NCBI RefSeq assembly: GCF_019649055.1 | Contig: NW_026570242.1 | Coordinates: forward strand, 1,178,001-1,242,000 | DNA: 64,000 nucleotides | Source of the DNA: Paramacrobiotus metropolitanus | Taxonomy: Eukaryota > Tardigrada > Eutardigrada > Parachela > Macrobiotidae | Direction of reading: 5' to 3' | Shown here: positions 16,191 to 60,197 of the stretch, piece by piece | Position numbering within the stretch: the stretch's first letter is position 1 | Layout: the number at the start of each line of letters is the position of its first letter | Notes under the pieces: generated by a model | Databases searched by the model: none | What the model was told of the DNA's origin: nothing | What the model saw: the letters and a program-made list of their open reading frames with translations, nothing else | Position numbers and translations under genes: made by a program

Positions 16191-16398
<208 letters not shown>

Positions 16399-16882: not shown

Positions 16883-17600
<718 letters not shown>

Positions 17601-40113: not shown

Positions 40114-40417
40114 AGTAGATTCAGCAAGCAGTTTGGACCCGTTCTATTGTTCTCTACAACAATGTACCCTATAATTAAGTAATTATCTATTGTTCGCGTG
40201 CGTTCGAGCGTAACGTGCGTGCGTAAAGTAATTATCTAGTGTAGTGGCGCGTAACCGTACACTAATTACAGGTGTACACTAATTAGGGCTAATTATACCT
40301 TACGTAATACTGTACACTAATTACAGGTATACTCGAAAAACAATTACAAATTTAATTTTGTTTTTTAATTAGTTTTTTGTGTTTTTTATACGTTTTTTGT
40401 ATGTGTAAAGTTGTTTT
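40114..40417 (+). repeat. Polinton left terminal inverted repeat, 304 bp
   Basis: Starts AGTAGATTCAGC. Read base by base against 59894-60197, I find no difference. It contains internal repeats of GTACACTAATTACAGGT and TAATTATCTA. Confidence 0.95.
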
Positions 40418-40690: not shown

Positions 40691-42624
40691 CTACAAAATC
40701 AACAGTGCAGTACTACTGATGTCGGTACGTCCACGCTGCCCGCGCTTGCCACGTCGAGCACCAAGGAAGGAGCCGCGAGTGCTGGCCAAAGTATCCCGCT
40801 GCTGCAAACGCGAGCTGCCCAGGTCTTGAACATGCTGGGGTGCCAATGACGGTGGTACGGTACCAACAGGAAAGAAGATGGATTGGGCCACAGAACCAGA
40901 CGAGCTCGGTTCCACAGGTGCTGCAGACGGTTGAGCGGAACCAGAAACGACAGCCGGCGGCAAGACGGACGGTGCAGCAGGCGGAGGAACAGGCGCTAAT
41001 GGTGCTGCGTTATAATTCATGCTACCGCCAGTGGTTCGTGGCTTAAAATCCTGCAGATCGTTTACAAGCTGTACATCGGCAGGCTTCAAGGTGACACGTT
41101 TGGCATGGATGGCTGCCTTGTTGGAGTCTTCGAACAGCTGAACCAAGAACATTTCTGTGGATTCCTGGAGGGCCATCAGGGCAGGGACTTGCCAGCGTAA
41201 TTCAGGATTGATGCCAGCACAGATCTCACGCACGAAACGCTGAAACGGAAGCTTTCGGCAGAGTAGTCGTGCGTTGCAAATGCTTGATGTCCTGCAGGGC
41301 TTTCTCGCCGGGGCGCGCACGCTTGCGAAGCCTTTTGCCTTTCTTCGTGCGCTTGGTCGGCTGTTCTGGAGGCTGCAAAACTGGGTGTCCCGGATCATCG
41401 CCTTGGTCGTCGTCATCATCAGAACCACTAGCTGGTAGCTCCAGTACGTCCAGGGCGGAGTCAACGCTCAGACGCGCAGCGTGGAACTCAGCGGTCTTCT
41501 GACGGATTCGTTCCACGTTGACGGGGTTAGGAGCCGCTAATCCACCTTCCGCTTCCTCATCGGAATCCGGCTGAGGCGCTCTGAATAAAATTTCGAAAAA
41601 GTTGAGTAAGTGACACACATGCTGCATGTATACGTTTTACCGGGCAATTTCGAAAAATGCTTATAATGATATTTTACGTACTGTGAGGACCCAGGGGCAA
41701 AACCAGACCGGTTGGACGCTGCAGAACTCAGACCCCGTTCTCGACTGGCTGATCCAATCGGACTGGAACTGAAATTTCGAAAACCATAAGTAAACGAGCA
41801 ACGTTCATAATTCTAGTGCAGGATACTGGACAAAATCGAAAATTCTCACCTAGGCAAGCCGTTGCTGTACGTAGTGCCGTCCATCGTCTTCCTGGCTCGC
41901 CCAGTTCCACGACCGGAGGTTGTCGGTTGAGGATCCCTAGAAAAAGTACGCATGTGTATAACAGAAGATCAAAGTTGCAGTAAAAGTTTTCCCATGGTAC
42001 CCGTATGAACTAGCGTAGGTGGTGTAGTCCATGGTCTTTCGCGGAGCAGGCTCTCGGTGAACAGACTTGGAAGTGCGCTCCGGTACCCCTTCATCCGATC
42101 AACCTGAAGACGAAGCCCCATCTTCCTCCTCTGTATTGTAAGGAGGATCTTTCTCTGGGTCGTCCTGCGCTTCTTCCTCCAGATCACGCGCGTACTCTGT
42201 GCGGTTGTCGGTCTCATCTTCTCCGCCGTCGACATCCTCGACATCAGACTGGGGGCTCAGCGGACGTTTCAGCCCAACAGAAGAAGGTATTTCTGGAGAT
42301 GCGGAGTGACCTAAAATGTACACGTTAACGAAAATAAAATTTGTATTTTTTATAAAGGAAATTGTGTTACCGCTGTGATACGTGAGGCATCTGCATTGCC
42401 TCAGGGACACCGATGACTCTGTCCAGAGGAATGACGGGATTAGCGTCAACTCCATCGGCCTCAACATGTTCCTGGACATTCATGCTACCGTTGTCCTCAG
42501 CGCCTGGACCGTCTGAACTACGCTCCGGGACGTCCCCGTTCGCAGCTGCATTTTCAGATACCAGCTGAGGCACACGACTGAGGACGTTGTTCATCAGCGA
42601 GACTACGTCATCAAGTACAGACAT
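40691..42624 (-). pseudogene. Polinton gene with a histone H3 fold and very long N-terminal tail
   Basis: The histone fold (about 41315-41045) reads R-A-R-P-G-E-K-A-L-Q-D-I, L-L-C-R-K-L-P-F-Q-R-F-V-R-E-I, V-P-A-L-M-A-L-Q-E-S, L-V-Q-L-F-E-D-S-N and A-I-H-A-K-R-V-T-L-K-P-A-D, which is H3 alpha-N through alpha-3 and loop 2. Exons: a 42624-42372, b 42310-42001, c 41936-41850, d 41768-41682, e 41580-40691. Phases agree at b-c, c-d and d-e; exons c and d are both 87 nt. The tail before the fold is about 300 residues, acidic and disordered; after it come Pro-rich and basic (R-R-G-K-R-G) segments. Breaks: the a-b phase does not fit, TGA at 42099-42101, and a frameshift at about 41262-41270 inside alpha-N. 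It would act in packaging element or host DNA. Whether it is H3-, CENP-A- or virus-type is open. Confidence 0.85.
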
Positions 42625-42984: not shown

Positions 42985-43621
42985 CTAATCAGTGCGAGGG
43001 CTATCTTCAACACTTTCGTTTAAAACGGACATTTCGAAGCTGTTGTTTGTACCTCCAGAACTCTGCTTGATACAGCGGCGTTTAACAAACACAACAGCAC
43101 TGGCCACAACAATACAAAAAACGGTTATGCCGATGATCGAGTAAATAATATTAGGGACGGTAAAATCAGAGTCCGGATCCTGTACAGATGGAACGATCGT
43201 CGAGGTAGAAGCAACAGTCTGAGTGGCTGTAGTTCGCGTGGAGTTAAGCACTGAAACCGATGTCGAATCCGCTGGTACAGTTGTGGTCAGCGGAGCACAG
43301 TCAGTTAGCACGATGAAGTCCACAGGGATGGTTCAGTACAGTTGACCAGGGGTTGTCACGGGCGTCTAGATACACCAATCGTGGAAAGGTAGTCCTGAGA
43401 CCGGCGTAGGGCACTGCATACAGCCGATTTCCGCTCAAAAGTACATGTTTCACCCAAGTCTTTGGCGCAGTCGGTAGTGGGACGGCAGTCAGTCGGCGAT
43501 TAGCGCAATTAACCACGCCTTCCTGGTAGTCGCAGAGGCAGTGTTTGTAGCAGGGAATCCAGCCTCCTGCGTGACAACCAACCAGAAGAGTCATACCCAC
43601 GATGAAGTACATCAGCATCAT
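42985..43621 (-). pseudogene. Polinton leucine-rich-repeat type I membrane protein, two overlapping frames
   Basis: The first frame (43621-43301) has a signal peptide (M-Y-F-I-V-G-M-T-L-L-V-G-C-H-A), an LRRNT-like cysteine set (C-x3-C-x-C-x8-C) and one to two LRRs (L-L-S-G-N-R-L, L-V-Y-L-D-A-R-D-N-P-W). The second (43323-42985) has a Thr/Ser-rich stalk with N-S-T sites, a transmembrane helix (I-I-Y-S-I-I-G-I-T-V-F) and a short tail (K-R-R-C). The frames overlap by 23 bp, with a stop between them in the second frame, so a single indel could separate halves of one receptor-like protein. They could also be two genes. It is not part of the Polinton core and may be a host capture. Confidence 0.6.
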
Positions 43622-43734
43622 CTAGAACATTGCAAGCATCTATCAGTGCAATTTTATTTAGCGCTCATTTGAAGATTTTCAGTGTCCTAACTCCAGCAAT
43701 ATTTCTCAAGTCTAACTGCAATATTTCCGCAATC

Positions 43735-44484
43735 ATGTCCATGGAAAAGATTGCACATGCTCTGTTTCCTATTGGACCTGGTCCACGCACTTTGAAAAAC
43801 GGAATAGTCTACTACCCGCAGCTAGATGCTAAAGATCTCAACGTCTTGCAGACCGTTTACAACCACCTTAAAGACCGTTTTATGGCAGCGCAGAAATTGT
43901 ATCCGGATATTACAATTGGAGTGCGTTTGCAGTTTACAAGAGATGACTGGTTCCATCAAAGCCCTATGGGCGAAGTTGCGTTCGCTTTGTATCCGCTGGA
44001 ACCAGCAAAGGGTGGTCTCCAGGCCGGAGGCCAGCTGTCATGCAGAATTACAAACGAAGACGAATGGCGCCGTGTCATACGAGATTTGGCTCATGGCAGG
44101 CTCCGCAATTATCTGAAGTATTACGTGAAAAAATGGAGAAACGACCACCCAAATTATGGATACAAGATTCAACAAGTCATCACAGTGGAGTGCCCTGACA
44201 GTACTGGTGTGAAGGTCTGGAGCGAGTGCGTGATGGGAGTTGGATTGGAGGAAGGGAATGAAATGCCGAAATTTGACTACTATTATCAACGTGTTGACAA
44301 GTTTGAGAAAATGAAGTTGCTGAAGCCTGGACACGGACCTCCAGCTACGCAACCGGAGGATCTACAAGAAGAGGACGAAGGATTTCAGGATGGTGCGTTC
44401 GGGCCGCCATGCAACCCAGACTGGGGCGACGAAATGAGTGGAATTCCACCGGATATGAAGATCACGGACAGCGATTGCGAATAA
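43735..44484 (+). CDS. Polinton accessory protein, 249 aa, intact, unknown
   Basis: An uninterrupted intronless frame. I start it at ATG 43735 (M-S-M-E-K); an earlier in-frame start at 43630 would add a hydrophobic stretch. The middle is mixed alpha/beta (T-I-G-V-R-L-Q-F-T-R-D-D-W) and the C terminus is acidic and Pro-rich. No transmembrane helix or nucleotide-binding motif is visible, and no family was recognised. It is one of few frames here without a break. Confidence 0.65.
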   Translation: MSMEKIAHALFPIGPGPRTLKNGIVYYPQLDAKDLNVLQTVYNHLKDRFMAAQKLYPDITIGVRLQFTRDDWFHQSPMGEVAFALYPLEPAKGGLQAGGQLSCRITNEDEWRRVIRDLAHGRLRNYLKYYVKKWRNDHPNYGYKIQQVITVECPDSTGVKVWSECVMGVGLEEGNEMPKFDYYYQRVDKFEKMKLLKPGHGPPATQPEDLQEEDEGFQDGAFGPPCNPDWGDEMSGIPPDMKITDSDCE

Positions 44485-44575
44485 GGTACCCTGATTGTAC
44501 AGCTTCTTTCCAGTCAGTCGACAATAAATTTCGGTACATTTTGGATAATAAGTTTGTTTTAAAGTTTTAGTTGGA

Positions 44576-44818
44576 ATGGATCCGGAAACACCGCCTCCCA
44601 TTCCCGTCGTCGAGCGGAACTCGAAGGGGATTCTATTCTGGGCTTTATTTTACGCAATACCGTTCATTTTTTCGCATGTTATACGAATTATTACTGTCCT
44701 TGCGCTCAAGGTTACTGACAGATTTCCTGTCCACAATATTATTATGCCTTTAATTTCATTCATGTTCAATGAAACTCGACGTATGCTGACTGGTGGAAAT
44801 GGAAGTACAACTCAGTGA
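44576..44818 (+). CDS. Polinton small membrane protein, 80 aa
   Basis: Starts at ATG 44576. It has a Pro-rich head and one or two hydrophobic helices (I-L-F-W-A-L-F-Y-A-I-P-F-I-F, I-I-T-V-L-A-L). It overlaps the ATPase start by 26 bp, so they are probably co-transcribed. A virion membrane or assembly role is only a guess. Confidence 0.55.
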   Translation: MDPETPPPIPVVERNSKGILFWALFYAIPFIFSHVIRIITVLALKVTDRFPVHNIIMPLISFMFNETRRMLTGGNGSTTQ

Positions 44819-45457
44819 CAATTTCATGCACCCGACTTCTATTCTTATTAGTGGCAATTCTGGCTGCGGTAAAACAACCTTTGTGGCTAATATTTTACGT
44901 TACAATAAACTCGAAATCCCCGGAGCGAATATTTTGGTTTTACAAACAATACCAGCCGCTGTACGATACGCTTATCAGAGAAGGATTTCCTGTCACTTTT
45001 ATCGAGGGACTGCCAGACGAAATCTCAAAACCAAAATTTTTTGACAAATCGTACCTAAATCTGTGTGTAATCGATGATCTGCACTTGGAAGATTCTACCA
45101 GCAAGCACGTGGCCCAACTATTTTGTAACGGCGGAAGGCATTCAAACACCACAGTAATATATCTTACGCAGAACTTGTTTTTTAAACAAAGCTTCGGCCG
45201 CGACATTAGACTGAACGCCAAAATAATTATCTGTTTCCAAAAATCCACAAGACCGACAACAACTACAAATTCTCGGACGACAACTTTTCCCTCATAAGTT
45301 GAATTATTTTCTTGAATCAGTTAATGCTGCTTTTGAACGACCATATGGATATATAGTCATCGATCTACAGCATACGACTAGCGACCGTTTTCGTTTAAAG
45401 ACTGCAATTTTTGGTGAGAATTCTAACCGCTGCACCGAAGTATTTATTCCTGCATGA
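44793..45457 (+). pseudogene. Polinton FtsK/HerA-type DNA-packaging ATPase
   Basis: Walker A (G-N-S-G-C-G-K-T-T) is encoded at 44853-44879 in frame 3. Walker B (L-C-V-I-D-D-L-H) near 45061-45084 and the downstream T-Q-N motif are in frame 1. The C-terminal part is in yet another frame and ends at TGA 45455-45457. Two indels, near 44930-44945 and 45240, therefore break it. The family pumps genomic DNA into the capsid. Confidence 0.85.
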
Positions 45458-45783
45458 TGGAGCGTAGCAAAACGGTATCAAACATCGACCTACTGTCGTC
45501 AATTGCAAAAAGCAGGCCAAAGCTTGCAAAAGCAATCATAAAAAACGCAGAGGATACTCTCATTGACGCAATTTCTGAATGTGCGCTACAAATTGTGGAA
45601 GGACAGTTCCTGTCGCTGAGTCTTCTAAAGCACTGCGAGTAAAGCGAGTCCTGCCGTATTTGAAACTTTTATCAAAAAAATCGGTTTCTCGGCGTAAGAA
45701 ACGAAATTTTGTTGGCTAAAGGCTACGCGCTGTTGTCTCTCATTCTACCACCAGTCTTAAGTTTTATTCTTGGGAAAGTGTAA
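45454..45783 (+). pseudogene. Polinton small basic protein of a conserved Polinton family
   Basis: ATG overlaps the ATPase stop (ATGA). The open part (45454-45642) has K-L-A-K-A-I-I-K-N-A and I-S-E-C-A-L, a pattern I associate with a short protein found beside the ATPase in many Polintons. The expected Arg/Lys-rich middle and hydrophobic C terminus continue in other frames to 45783, so it is frameshifted. Function unknown; a core or scaffolding role is possible. Confidence 0.5.
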
Positions 45784-46844: not shown

Positions 46845-47250
46845 TCAACCCACGACAAGAATAATACAAGAAAAAATACAGAACAGTCCACACAAACTAG
46901 AATTAGGATGCTGCAATTGAGTATGGTTTTCTTGGTAATGACCATGAGCGTCTGGAAAATTTTCCACAATGAATTTATCAAATTCGATTCCATAAAACAA
47001 TGCTGATTTTCCAAAGGAATCGAAAACGTGATAGTTTTGGGTTCTTGGCAAAAACTGCTAGCCAGTGCTGCCCTGGCAAGGCTTTCTTATCGCTGTTGAC
47101 AATAAGAGCGACAGGATATTTTATCTTTTTCAGCTTTGGAAGTGCGTCTCTTGCGAATACTCCGACAAAAATGCCTCTAAGACAGGGGTCGTGCCGCACT
47201 ATATCCAGCAGTTGTAGATTATTCATTTTCAAGCACGCTTGTATGGACAA
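46845..47250 (-). pseudogene. Polinton adenain-type cysteine protease
   Basis: The first frame (to about 47040) has G-I-F-V-G-V-F-A-R-D-x-L-P, V-N-S-D and the catalytic His in G-Q-H-W. The second frame has F-D-S-F-G and the catalytic Cys in S-S-L-C-G-L-F near 46880. A frameshift near 47040 separates them. A likely start is the Met codon at 47226, overlapping the capsid gene end. The family matures capsid precursors. Confidence 0.8.
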
Positions 47251-48570: not shown

Positions 48571-49063
48571 TTAGTGTAAAATGGTGTTTAAAGGCAATCG
48601 AAGTCGTTTACGATGGCGACGGGTGCGATGGGTGTGCTTGGGAGTCCGCTTTTTATGCAAACGTTTTCCTTTTGGCTTTTTTGAAACTGATTTGGTGCGT
48701 CGTGTGCGTTTTTTCTTTATTACTGGCTTCACCGAAGTCTTTTTAGTCTTGCGATGACGCTTACGTCGTTTGCCCTTCCCCTTTTTCCAAATCAGCGGCC
48801 ATGCTTGCCAGAGTTTCACGCGTTCTTGACTGGGCGGAGTCTAATAAGGTTGTCTTATTCTGCATAACATCGTTAACAACGTTTCGACCCAAACGAACCA
48901 AATTAGGAAAAATAACATTTTTTGCTGTTCGAGCAAGGCTTCCGAAAAAATTTCCCAGCGAGCCGTATCCATTCTGTACATGACCGACATTTGAGGTATA
49001 ATTTGGAGATAATAGTTGGACATAAACTTGCGCGGGAATCGAAAAACTATTAACTTCATCCAT
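48571..49063 (-). pseudogene. Polinton minor capsid/core protein, pVI-like with basic tail
   Basis: The first frame (49063-48761) has Y-G-S-L-G-N-F-F-G-S-L-A and an amphipathic helix as in adenovirus pVI-like Polinton proteins. The second (to 48571) is nearly all Lys/Arg/Thr (K-R-R-K-R-H-R-K-T-K-K). The switch lies near 48775-48785, which suggests a frameshift inside one gene. Two separate proteins, one pVII-like, are the alternative. Confidence 0.6.
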
Positions 49064-49546: not shown

Positions 49547-50776
49547 CTACACGACTTTTTCGAAATCCAGATTTTTATAAAAGAATGAGTCCCAACCGTT
49601 TAAGCTGTGCAACTGAAATCCATTTGTCGAACTTTTATGCCACCCAACGTAACGAATCAAAACTTTGTTGCCTTTTCTCGAGAGCACTGTGATTTCGGCA
49701 GACTCAGGAGTGTCTTTAGGAACTTTCTGTAATTCCCACATATAAAACGACCGTCCATTTCTTCATTTAGCAAGTCTTCGACTTTATACATAGGAATTGC
49801 TTCATGTATTTTGCAAAGTTTTACTCGATATACTTCAATTGTCCACCCTGGTGTATATCCTTTCTCCATATGAGTCTTTTAGCGAAAGGCGAACAAAATC
49901 ACCAACACGTGGCGTTTCTTTAAGCGCTCGTTTTGCTGCATATTCTGATTTGTCCCCGTACAAAATTTTTTAAACTTCTCGGTTTTATCTTTAGTTACTT
50001 CGTTTGGCGTATGAAACTTCAAACTTCTATGTGGACTGTTGTTATACGCATCAATAAATTTTTGAATAACATCAATCCACCTCTTTGTCCGGTTATGCGA
50101 AAAGTATCTAAACAGCTTTGTGGATAAAGTGCGATTGAGACTTTCGACTTGACCCTTTGATCTCAGCGTTGTTTGTTGAAAAATGTTCGATTCCGTATTC
50201 ACTCATTAAACTTTGAAACTCCGAGTTGTAGAATTCCGTTCCCAAATCAGTTTGGACTTTATTAGGTATAAACCCACAACGATTCAAAATTAACTGAAAA
50301 GCATCCTTTACATCCACAGCACTTTTACGTTTAATTGGTTCAATCCACGCACGTCGAGAAAACAATCTTCAACAACAAGAAGGTAATTATACCCATCATT
50401 CTGTTTAGCGAGAGCAGTGTAATCAATTAAGTCCGCCTGCAGCTGATCTTCAGGTCCGGGAACAACAAAATGCAAGCGTTGAAATTTTTTCGCACGGGTT
50501 TATGTAACGTATACGCTTTCTGGCGGCTGAGAAATTCTTAACGGCTTCAGGTGAAACAGTGTCTTTGGAACGTTTTTGCGCTTCTCGTAGAAGAGGAACG
50601 ACACCACCAAACGCGCCAGGAGACGAAGGATCAAAATAAATTTTTTCAGTAAATTTTCCATGGATGATTGCAGCAAGACGATTGTCAAGTCCTTTTGGAA
50701 TCGTGGAATTCAAAACTGAATACGCATCTGGCCTCGCCAAACAGTCAAACATTTGTAAAACATAATACATGAACAA
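49547..50776 (-). pseudogene. Polinton integrase (rve family) with C-terminal chromo-like region
   Basis: The N-terminal part (Y-F-D-P-S-S-P-G-A-F-G-G) is at about 50640. The first catalytic Asp segment, near 50430, lies in another frame. The core has Q-T-D-L-G-T-E-F (50255 region) and the Glu in V-E-S-L-N-R (50150 region). The tail has K-G-Y-T-P-G-W and a chromo-like L-I-R-Y-V-G-W-H near 49650. At least three frameshifts separate these. The family inserts the linear element into host DNA and makes the 6-bp duplication. Confidence 0.85.
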
Positions 50777-51162: not shown

Positions 51163-54100
51163 TTAATCAATAAAATATCCTGGATCGTCGTTATCGAGAT
51201 CCTCGGTTAACATATCAGGATTAAAGCGTTCCATCAACTGATTTACAATTTTGAACTCTAGAGAATCAACTGCAGGAAAATGTATACCGTGATAGCCAAG
51301 TGGAAAAGTTTCGAAGTCACGCCCAATAACACGACTGGTCACAGTACAACCAATGCGGCGAATCAACGGCACTGTCTGAATGCTTAGCTTATCGGTATCC
51401 TTTTTAAATGTAATATCGTGACAAGCCGTTATCTGTGTGGGACCATCACCGAACAACATCGACTTCAATGTTTTGATATTGACGCGATCTTTAAGCCCAT
51501 CACTCTTTGGGATTCCTTTGCACTTAATGCGCTGTTCACCATTGCTCATAACCTGGCAATACGTTTTCTTTGCGAGTGCAGCCCATTCGACGAAATGCTT
51601 TCCGCCGAGGTCGTCGGATAACTGTCCAATGATCTCACCGACAGGGGATCATCCGTTCCCGGAACACTCACAAACATAACGGAGTCAGTATCGCAATAGA
51701 GCAGACGATCTTCCACAGCTCTGAGCGCTTTAAGTAACTCGAGTTGAGCAAGCTCAGTCGTGAATTTACCGATGTATGGGTTAGTGCGTTTGTTTGGAGC
51801 TACCTAAAACATTTTCGAAAACGTGCCGAGATTAGTTACCGCAGGACTGAAACATCACTCTACAAGACAAAAACGAAATTTCCATACCCATCCAGCTTTT
51901 CTTGAAACGTAACGTCAATCGAATTTCCTTCGTTAACCATGCGAACATCGTTCGTTATGTACTGGTTGTTGAAGACAATGTCCTTCATATCTTTGTATGT
52001 GTGGCAGTATTTATTCTGCCGATAAATTTCCTTCATGACATACCTATTAAGGAAAATGATTCAAGAAATGATTAAACACTCTTGAATCACATTCTTACCG
52101 TCCCCAAACGCAGTTGGCACTGATCTTGCTGGAGTGCCGTAAGCCAGGGTTGTAGCTGACTTCTTCGGGCGTAAAATAATTCCAAGCTCATCCTCATACT
52201 GCTGACAGTAGCGAATCTTCTCTTAGTCGTTGTAATGTGTGAAGGAAAACCACTGCTGATGATTTTAGCGTGAATGAGATCGAGCAAAAACTTGGCAAAA
52301 ATTCCTCCTGTTCGTGTATCTTTGTTAAATTTACTGCGGTTCGGAAATTGGTGCACTCATACACTTTACGAATCAAATATCGACACTTGACACTTACATA
52401 TCCATTCTTTGACAGCTTGTGAGGACACGTCCTGCACAGAGTATACACTGTACGACCGTCAACCAATCGGCATGGAAGGGTGGGGACTTTCAAGTCGTAC
52501 GGCGGCCAGACAAAACAGTACACGACGCCAAAGTATTCATTCAACCTGAACGGCTTTTGGAGGCTGGAAAATCCGGAAAAATAATTTTTGGATGTCCGAC
52601 AGGATATTCCCAAAAATCATAACCGATGGATACAAAGAAATAAAATCCAAAGCTTTTCCTTTACAACCATCCGGAATGTCTTTGTAGATCGAAAAGACTT
52701 CTGTTCGACCCCGAATAAATGATCACGGACATTCATGCGCTTCCGGAAGTCATTTCCAACTGTAATCTCTCCACTTTTAACTTTTCGTCGAAATCGCATT
52801 CCCAAATGCTTCTGAACCCTCGCACACGCACTTCAGGGTTTTCTTGGTTAGGATAAACGTTTCTAATGTAGTGCTCGACTCTTCTGTCTCCCTCCCGCAG
52901 TTCGCCAAAAGTCTTCATTCGTACTGTGTTCATACGGGAGGATTGGGAAGCACTTCCGACAGCCATGCCAAAAGCACCCATAAAACTGCCACACATCGCC
53001 AAACTCGTCAAATCCGTCCACGGGTATGGACCAATATACAATTCCCTCTAGCTTACGCGCATGGCGTACTTCCGTTCCCGTTCTATTCTCGAACCACGTC
53101 ATCCACTGAATAGCCTTATCGCTTTGATTATGCGCCCTGCCGTAGCCGTTCGCTGGAAGTATTCCAATCGTTTCAGGTTGCAGGTAGTGCACTTGAAAGG
53201 CTTTCATAACGGCCGAAGGATTCGTGGGTTCGTCGAAAGGATCCAACCCGGGAAAGAGATTAGTAAAGGATGAACGCGTAATCTTGGCACACTCGCGTAG
53301 GACCAGAACGTCGTTGACACAGTATTTTTCGCACTCATCCATAAGATTGTAGTTATTTCCGAAGATGTGTACGGCATTGGTGTACCATTGCTCAAACTCG
53401 CTTATCTTCGATGCAGACATCCGTTCAGTATTGAAGAACTCCTTAGCTGAAATTTCGAAAAGTCTTGGTACGTCCAACAGGAAATAAATACCTATGCAAG
53501 TTTACTAAGCAATTTCGAAAATTTATCTCACCTGGCACCGGGCCAATGTAGTTTTCGTTTTCAGGAGTATTAAATAAATACGGGAAAATCCTTTGAGGAC
53601 CAGGTGGCTTATTCCGAGATCCTTTGAAGCTCCGCCAGACTTCTCGGCATAAACGAAAGCGTATCCACGAATCTAGCGTTCACTCCTGGTACTGTGATCA
53701 GAGTAAGACTGGCACCATCTTGAATTTTACGAGCATAATGTCCTTGGCCTTCAAGTGCTCGAAGGATAAAATAGTTATCATATCGTCGTCCGTTGTGTGA
53801 CAGGAAAGTGCAGTGCTTTGTATGTTTGAAGATCCATTCAAGTAAATCATCAGCGCACGAATTGCCACGAAATGTCAGGCTAAAGTTATCGTCGTCCAAA
53901 CACATAAGCGCCGCCATGTTTGGATAATGGTAGCGTGAATTATCCAAACCAGCTTCAAAATCGAAAACAAATTTCTTGCTCACAAACTTCGTAATCCGTA
54001 CATCTGATGTAACTCTGTTCGCTGGTCCATTTTCCAGGTTGGAGACTTCCTTGCGAAAAGAGTCATTAAAGTCCGACTGTGCATCAGTCTCGTCAAACTC

Positions 54101-59893: not shown

Positions 59894-60197
59894 AAAACAA
59901 CTTTACACATACAAAAAACGTATAAAAAACACAAAAAACTAATTAAAAAACAAAATTAAATTTGTAATTGTTTTTCGAGTATACCTGTAATTAGTGTACA
60001 GTATTACGTAAGGTATAATTAGCCCTAATTAGTGTACACCTGTAATTAGTGTACGGTTACGCGCCACTACACTAGATAATTACTTTACGCACGCACGTTA
60101 CGCTCGAACGCACGCGAACAATAGATAATTACTTAATTATAGGGTACATTGTTGTAGAGAACAATAGAACGGGTCCAAACTGCTTGCTGAATCTACT
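59894..60197 (-). repeat. Polinton right terminal inverted repeat, 304 bp
   Basis: Exact reverse complement of 40114-40417 by eye. Confidence 0.95.

What the first reader, a model, noticed from the sequence alone, without database searches (positions are those of the whole stretch)
40691..41580. Histone H3 fold encoded inside a Polinton
The minus strand inside the TIRs encodes an unmistakable H3 fold: alpha-N R-P-G-E-K-A-L, L-P-F-Q-R-F-V-R-E-I, L-F-E-D-S-N and A-I-H-A-K-R-V-T-L-K-P. Histones are known in some large DNA viruses, but I know of no H3-like gene described as Polinton cargo. Loop 2 and alpha-3 are close to canonical H3, while the tail is about 300 residues, acidic and unlike H3 or CENP-A. 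It could package element DNA in a capsid, chromatinise the episome, or perturb host nucleosomes.
Basis: partly seen in the sequence, partly recalled or inferred. Interest (0 to 1): 0.93.

Follow-up and report, generated by a model that had tools for sequence, protein, structure and literature searches.

The report
Tardigrade Polinton carrying a histone H3
A virus-like jumping gene in a tardigrade genome carries its own altered version of the DNA-packaging protein histone H3; sister elements keep the gene open and exchange different versions of it, which suggests that it matters in the contest between the element and its host's chromatin.

Summary
The finding holds and is stronger than stated. 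Window 40114-60197 is a 20,084-bp Polinton with identical 304-bp inverted repeats in the tardigrade Paramacrobiotus metropolitanus. Its leftmost minus-strand gene encodes an H3-type fold (Pfam Histone 4e-22; all 60 listed PDB matches are H3 kinds). This copy is frame-broken between alpha-N and alpha-1. It is not alone: 16 of 41 related element loci carry the gene in the same slot and orientation, 9 with an open frame of 288-330 aa, in four lineages with 36-53% fold identity to host H3. In two lineages the fold is under purifying selection (dN/dS 0.06-0.17 in the five intact, informative pairs), unlike element-less relic copies (0.6-0.8). The histone end is exchanged between elements: C18 joins a C84-type backbone to a C43-type histone end. 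A related Polinton group shows no histone. Best reading: a captured H3 that pairs with host H4 and forms variant chromatin lacking the H3 tail marks, helping the element avoid silencing. Gene, copies, constraint and exchange are shown; pairing, deposition and effect are inferred. Single H3s are known in other viruses; my searches found none reported in a Polinton.

The parts
40114..40417 (+). left terminal inverted repeat (304 nt), flanked by AGAAC
59894..60197 (-). right terminal inverted repeat, identical, followed by AGAAC
40691..41467 (-). ORF with histone fold from alpha-1 on, then C-terminal extension
   Evidence: Pfam Histone 4.1e-22; PDB H3.3 3.4e-22
41226..41636 (-). ORF in another frame with the main exon of the N-tail and alpha-N (RPGEKAL); overlaps the previous ORF, frame break between the two
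   Evidence: main exon 41229-41579 of P0007
41684..42032 (-). N-tail exons 1-3 of the annotated gene model (about 42000-42032, 41855-41935, 41684-41770)
   Evidence: P0007 peptides mapped to the window
42985..43621 (-). LRR N-terminal-like membrane protein gene, two overlapping frames; neighbour of the histone in the elements examined
   Evidence: LRRNT E 0.034, below cut-off; conserved in 9 of 9 flanked loci; membrane segment by eye
43606..44484 (+). conserved ORF of unknown function used as element marker
   Evidence: 50 matches, 41 loci; no protein-database relative
44552..45642 (+). packaging ATPase pieces
   Evidence: Pox_A32 E 0.006, below cut-off; 151 matches in the assembly, only 150 of 310 candidates scored
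46826..47086 (-). adenain-type protease piece
   Evidence: Peptidase_C5 E 0.0044 on 46848-47057, below cut-off
49879..50368 (-). integrase pieces
   Evidence: rve E 1.7e-7 and rve_3 E 7e-4, both just below cut-off
52537..53501 (-). family B DNA polymerase pieces
   Evidence: DNA_pol_B_2 E 1.5e-4; DNA_pol_B E 0.0052; both below cut-off

Best explanation
An ancestor of one Polinton clade in the tardigrade Paramacrobiotus metropolitanus captured an H3-type histone gene, which became a standing element gene between the terminal repeat and the LRR/membrane-protein gene. The protein is a single H3 fold with a new N-tail (157 aa in the annotated gene model, without the H3 tail motif) and an 87-147 aa C-terminal extension. 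I found no other core histone in the element, so it must use host H4. Most likely it enters nucleosome-like particles with host H4 on element DNA and perhaps on host chromatin; because its tail has no H3K4, K9 or K27 context, such chromatin would escape tail-based silencing. Versions are exchanged between co-resident elements at the histone end, as expected of an accessory gene in conflict with the host. SHOWN: gene, place, copies, constraint on the fold, exchange. INFERRED: capture from a host, pairing with H4, deposition, anti-silencing effect.
For: Same slot and divergent orientation in 16 of 41 marker loci; open frames of 288-330 aa in 9 of 16. Fold dN/dS 0.06, 0.07 (lineage B) and 0.13, 0.13, 0.17 (lineage C) between intact copies, upper limits 0.15-0.42, against 0.62-0.84 for four paralogue pairs of relic copies. 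Mosaic C18: breakpoint near +1254, 0 of 1000 shuffles. Eighteen of 90 fold positions identical in four lineages and host H3, including R42, R69, R72, H113, R116, T118, L126; DNA-contact plus H3-H3 bundle positions 8 of 21, expected 4.2, p 0.024, uncorrected, classes recalled. No other core histone in 30 ORF pieces scanned with Pfam.
Against: No expression or biochemical data. The window copy and 6 others are broken or truncated. Three of nine B/C fold pairs have dN/dS intervals that include 1 (few changes or the broken copy C266), lineage D is uninformative, and the A pair gives 0.69, confounded by the frame break. Core hydrophobic positions are not specially kept (6 of 28, expected 5.6), and lineages C and D keep only 11 and 8 of 28, so H4 pairing is uncertain there. 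Whole-ORF dN/dS is 0.18-0.85 in B and C. The structure model was poor. Known relatives with a shown function were not available for comparison.
Confidence: 0.5

Rival explanations
1. Decoy or poison: the protein binds host H4 or H3 chaperones without forming productive nucleosomes and so disturbs host chromatin assembly while the element replicates.
For: Only the H3 partner is found in the element; chaperone-site letters (H3 87-90) differ between lineages and from host H3 (read); core positions poorly kept in C and D.
Against: DNA-contact and bundle positions are kept rather more than expected (8 of 21, p 0.024), which a pure decoy would not need.
Confidence: 0.2
2. Virion core protein: it condenses element DNA inside the capsid.
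For: Polintons can form virus particles (recalled; PMC6431247 passages say many encode capsid-like proteins); basic C-tail in lineages A and B (pI 10.2-11.9).
Against: A very basic ORF (48574-48840, by eye) could already do this; the sister Polinton group shows no histone; acidic N-tail.
Confidence: 0.1
3. CENP-A-like role: it marks element or host DNA for segregation.
For: W in place of F84 in lineages A and B and loss of T107 in all four (read); both recalled as frequent in CENP-A.
Against: Closer to host H3 than to the host CENP-A candidate C26: 48/95 against 40/93 (C19), 46/95 against 38/93 (C16), 36/95 against 28/93 (C84), 34/95 against 24/93 (C393); no loop-1 insertion and Q68 kept; no tree link.
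Confidence: 0.06
4. Passenger: a captured host gene without function, on its way out.
For: 7 of 16 copies, this window's included, are broken or truncated; A pair dN/dS 0.69, confounded.
Against: Fold dN/dS 0.06-0.17 in five B and C pairs of intact copies; open frames in 9 of 16 copies although the folds share only 36-53% with host H3; relics outside elements look unconstrained.
Confidence: 0.07

Closest known systems
Single viral H3s, e.g. Manila clam xenomavirus H3 (review PMC9145170: section on single H3s read in full, other passages)
   Same: A lone H3 in a DNA virus, some with a longer N-tail; presumed to work with host histones.
   Different: Those are 73-87% (single histones overall 73-89%) identical to host or eukaryotic histones in the fold by that review; these are 36-53%, have a C-terminal extension, form four lineages and lie in an integrating Polinton of an animal.
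Bracovirus H4 (same review, passages)
   Same: A captured single histone with an extended N-tail in an animal-associated viral element.
   Different: H4, host-like fold, carried by a domesticated nudivirus descendant.
'Histoid' genes of Xeno-class adomaviruses, a clam adomavirus with adintovirus-like virion proteins, and a tailtomavirus (preprint PMC11071296, passages)
   Same: Histone-like genes in midsize DNA viruses of or near animals, one with Polinton-related virion proteins.
   Different: Only remote histone similarity is reported there; no Polinton with PolB and integrase carrying an H3 is described in the passages seen. Sequences not compared here.
Giant-virus histone doublets (L035; same review)
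   Same: H3 fold encoded by a DNA virus.
   Different: Fused folds in one ORF (L035, two folds by reading); L035 is the longest branch of the tree.

Membership tests
Polinton/Maverick | terminal inverted repeats of hundreds of bp | tested here: met
   304 nt, identical
Polinton/Maverick | 6-bp target duplication (recalled) | tested here: inconclusive
   exact 5-bp AGAAC on both sides
Polinton/Maverick | family B polymerase and rve integrase | tested here: met
   pieces match DNA_pol_B_2 1.5e-4, DNA_pol_B 0.0052, rve 1.7e-7, each below the curated cut-off because the genes are broken
Polinton/Maverick | adenain-type protease and A32/FtsK ATPase | tested here: met
   Peptidase_C5 0.0044, Pox_A32 0.006; weak, below cut-off
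Polinton/Maverick | major and minor capsid proteins | tested here: inconclusive
   no Pfam match on the candidate ORFs; not folded
Histone H3 | histone fold closest to H3 among core histones | tested here: met
Histone H3 | alpha-N with RPG | tested here: met
   RPG in lineages A and B; RMG or RLG in C and D
Histone H3 | N-terminal ARTKQTARKS tail | tested here: not met
   absent on reading P0007 and the open frames
Histone H3 | pairs with H4 and enters nucleosomes | not testable with these tools
   needs biochemistry
CENP-A (CenH3) | loop-1 insertion; closer to CENP-A than to H3 | tested here: not met
   no insertion; four of four lineages closer to host H3 than to candidate C26
recent single viral H3 class (PMC9145170) | single H3 gene without other histones | tested here: met
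   no other core histone in 30 ORF pieces with Pfam
recent single viral H3 class (PMC9145170) | 73-89% identity to the host counterpart in the fold | tested here: not met
   32-48 of 90 positions, 36-53%
Histoid (PMC11071296) | homology to those proteins | not tested
   sequences not at hand

The most novel reading that the evidence does not exclude
A clade of animal Polintons carries a fast-diverging, exchangeable set of H3 variants that build silencing-resistant chromatin with host H4 on their own DNA: an element-encoded epigenetic state whose versions are reshuffled between elements as the host's chromatin defence changes.
Probability: 0.3. Interest if true: 0.88.

Novelty: new variant of a known kind. 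Interest (0 to 1): 0.74.

Why it matters
Virus-encoded histones are debated as recent theft or ancient relics (PMC9145170), with little evidence of what keeps them. Here one animal genome holds many related copies, intact and broken, with a selection signal, a presence/absence pattern between sister element groups and a recombination record. That makes it testable what a genomic parasite gains from its own H3, and adds a chromatin protein to the genes that travel on Polintons.

Tried and rejected
Single host H3 insertion or assembly accident: rejected by 16 loci with the same slot. Giant-virus source: not supported; the one viral-contig match to host H3 (L035) has two folds in one ORF by reading and is the longest branch. 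Viral-contig scans with A1, A3 and the ATPase gave no relative, and phage records no match. The spider protein P0012 scored 1e-36 against A3 but is a fused model of an ordinary histone cluster (97% to host H3). The structure model (mean pLDDT 61, pTM 0.29) and its three weak PDB matches, all to nucleosome structures with rmsd about 12, add nothing. The tandem histone pieces on C251 and C103 were considered as domesticated genes; no element gene matched within the 10-kb loci and dN/dS is 0.62-0.84 between paralogues, so relics are likelier. The tree cannot show one origin: element rows need two changes in the free tree, while holding element plus solo rows together raises the likelihood by 1.22 (p-AU 0.60).

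Full report
OBSERVATION. The window is G000:C22:1178001-1242000 of a 169.8-Mb assembly in 533 contigs. The host is taken to be the tardigrade Paramacrobiotus metropolitanus, because the protein P0007, 'uncharacterized protein LOC129586777 [Paramacrobiotus metropolitanus]', maps onto the window's own exons near 42000-42032, 41855-41935, 41684-41770 and 41229-41579. The element runs from 40114 to 60197 (20,084 bp), with 304-nt identical inverted repeats and AGAAC on both flanks. Pieces match family B polymerase, rve integrase, adenain and A32 ATPase, each below Pfam's curated cut-off, as expected of broken genes. Minus-strand ORF 40691-41467 matches Pfam Histone at 4.1e-22; the 60 listed of 176 PDB matches are all H3 kinds, the best H3.3 at 3.4e-22. 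Alpha-N lies in another frame, ORF 41226-41636, so this copy is broken between alpha-N and alpha-1.

NOT A SINGLE COPY. I searched the assembly with three histone lineages (38, 27 and 32 matches) and with the neighbouring marker ORF 43606-44484 (50 matches, which I group into 41 loci). Sixteen of the 41 have the histone 1-2.5 kb away in divergent orientation: C22 (window), C19, C16:1637k, C9:118k, C36:274k, C84, C18, C43, C95, C266, C393, C250, C441, C115, C9:237k and C442. Nine of these besides the window were checked with flanking DNA: histone, LRR/membrane ORF, marker and ATPase come in the same order in 9 of 9, the ATPase only partly matched in C36. Among marker loci with a match of 42% identity or more, 16 of 20 have the histone; among the 21 at 38% or less, none has a listed match. 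Of the four without it, C246 has a reverse-transcriptase-like ORF (by eye) in the slot; C55 and two at C90 were not opened. Two of the 21 (C25, C32) were opened: the LRR gene is there and a histone-fold profile found nothing. Nine of 16 copies have one open frame of 288-330 aa: C19, C16, C9:116k, C36, C84, C18, C43, C393, C250. Seven, the window copy included, are broken or truncated.

SELECTION. Fold dN/dS by Nei-Gojobori, all 13 within-lineage pairs. Lineage B: C16-C36 0.06 (95% 0.01-0.15), C9-C36 0.07 (0.02-0.21), C16-C9 0.40 (five changes, interval includes 1). Lineage C: C84-C18 0.13 (upper limit 0.25), C84-C43 0.13 (0.29), C18-C43 0.17 (0.42). With the broken partial copy C266: 0.19 (0.41), and 0.35 and 0.34 (intervals include 1). 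Lineage D: two, zero and two changes, not usable. Lineage A: 0.69, confounded because part of the window ORF is out of frame. Of four between-lineage fold comparisons two had saturated dS and two gave 0.45 and 0.23. Whole-ORF values in B and C are 0.18-0.85 and exceed the fold in 6 of 9 pairs (the other three are those with C266), so the tails look looser. As a contrast, the histone pieces without element genes on C251 and C103 (three tandem units on each of two contigs whose long blocks are 94-99% identical) give 0.62-0.84 in four paralogue pairs and 0.70 in one pair of counterparts; two further pairs had no synonymous change.

EXCHANGE OF THE HISTONE END. Between C84 and C18 the LRR, marker, ATPase and ORF45761 genes differ at dS 0.02-0.12 but the histone fold at 0.52; between C18 and C43 the histone differs at 0.22 and those genes at 0.26-0.73. 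Along the DNA, C18 sides with C43 from the terminal end to about +1254 from the low end of the histone ORF (90% of informative sites) and with C84 beyond (9% side with C43); 0 of 1000 shuffles reach this break. C16-C36 shows histone dS 0.38 against 0.06 (LRR) and 0.04 (marker), the two genes that could be compared; its shuffle test also gave 0 of 1000, but for a small step outside the gene (0.24 to 0.05 near -444), so I do not call it a mosaic. Between lineages A and B the marker and ATPase are 93-95% identical (dS 0.85-0.94), the LRR protein 70-74%, and the histone fold 51-52% with saturated or near-saturated dS. So the histone end seems older than the backbone split and to have been replaced or swapped.

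WHAT THE PROTEIN KEEPS. At H3 positions 42-131, C19, C16, C84 and C393 share 48, 46, 36 and 32 of 90 residues with host H3. Eighteen positions are identical in these four and host H3: R42 G44 A47 F67 Q68 R69 V71 R72 A88 L92 Q93 E97 A111 H113 A114 R116 T118 L126. DNA contacts hold 5 of 12 (p 0.058), the H3-H3 bundle 4 of 10 (p 0.108), the two together 8 of 21 (p 0.024) and the hydrophobic core 6 of 28 (p 0.51); the residue classes are recalled and the four tests are not corrected. The N-tail part within the main exon has net charge -2 in C19 and -8 to -16 in the other five copies analysed; the C-tail is 87-147 aa. I see no H3 tail motif.

ORIGIN. The host has intronless H3 genes (C25:257-267k, L010), intron-bearing ones split after ALQ (L027, L028), divergent H3-like genes (C3, C15, C47 twice, C167) and a CENP-A candidate (C26, by its loop-1 insertion, although PDB ranks H3.3 first). 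The element fold is uninterrupted in the intact copies, while the N-tail has three introns in the gene model. In a 73-column tree the nearest host row is 1.33 changes per site from lineage A and 1.7 from B; one clade of element plus solo rows is not rejected (p-AU 0.60) but not shown either. Protein-database searches with A1 (11 hits) and A3 (2 hits) found H3- or CENP-A-type proteins and the window's own gene; in both only about 8000 best candidates were scored. I could not search other tardigrade genomes.

FUNCTION. Shown: a retained, constrained, exchanged gene. Inferred: as no other core histone was found in 30 ORF pieces, nor another H3-like fold in any window ORF of 20 aa or more, the protein relies on host H4; kept DNA and dyad contacts argue for deposition; a foreign acidic tail argues for chromatin that H3-tail marks cannot silence. 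Decoy, core-protein, CENP-A-like and passenger readings are given as rivals. My confidence that this is a real, selected Polinton gene is about 0.95; that its job is variant chromatin with host H4, about 0.5.

LITERATURE. Nine searches: Polinton/histone (65 papers, 30 listed), Maverick/histone/nematode (34, 20 listed), Polinton/tardigrade (2), P. metropolitanus/genome/histone (4), adintovirus/histone (5), histone H3/Maverick/Polinton (11), viral histones (11, 10 listed), Maverick/tardigrade (2), Polinton/cargo gene (3). None showed an H3 in a Polinton. Most papers were judged by title and start of abstract only; I saw passages of PMC12721341, PMC12220804, PMC11244446, PMC11071296, PMC11071193 and PMC6431247, and of PMC9145170 passages, abstract and the section on single H3s in full. 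Only open-licence papers are held, so absence from print is not established.

Noticed in passing
window 42985-43621 (-); L036 1145-1816; L037 2883-3581: A short LRR N-terminal-like protein with a membrane segment (by eye) sits beside the histone and is also present in related Polintons without histone; it too diverges fast (70-74% between lineages A and B).
   Followed up: partly
L014-L016 (C251) and L020-L022 (C103): Three tandem element-type histone pieces on each of two near-identical contigs, without element genes within the loci; dN/dS 0.62-0.84 between paralogues.
   Followed up: partly
G000 genome-wide: 151 Polinton ATPase matches, a lower bound since 150 of 310 candidates were scored: a Polinton-rich animal genome.
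   Followed up: no
L039, L040, L041, L042 (C15, C47, C47, C167); L011 (C3): Several divergent host H3-like genes, four of them with an intron in the fold: an unusually varied H3 family in a tardigrade.
   Followed up: no
L036 2184-2795 and 3925-4998 (C25): UDP-glycosyltransferase-like ORFs (by eye) beyond the LRR gene where the sister group has the histone; cargo or host flank not settled.
   Followed up: no
window 16193-16394 and 16886-17060: Two long AT dinucleotide runs about 500 bp apart, the cause of many inverted-repeat reports.
   Followed up: no
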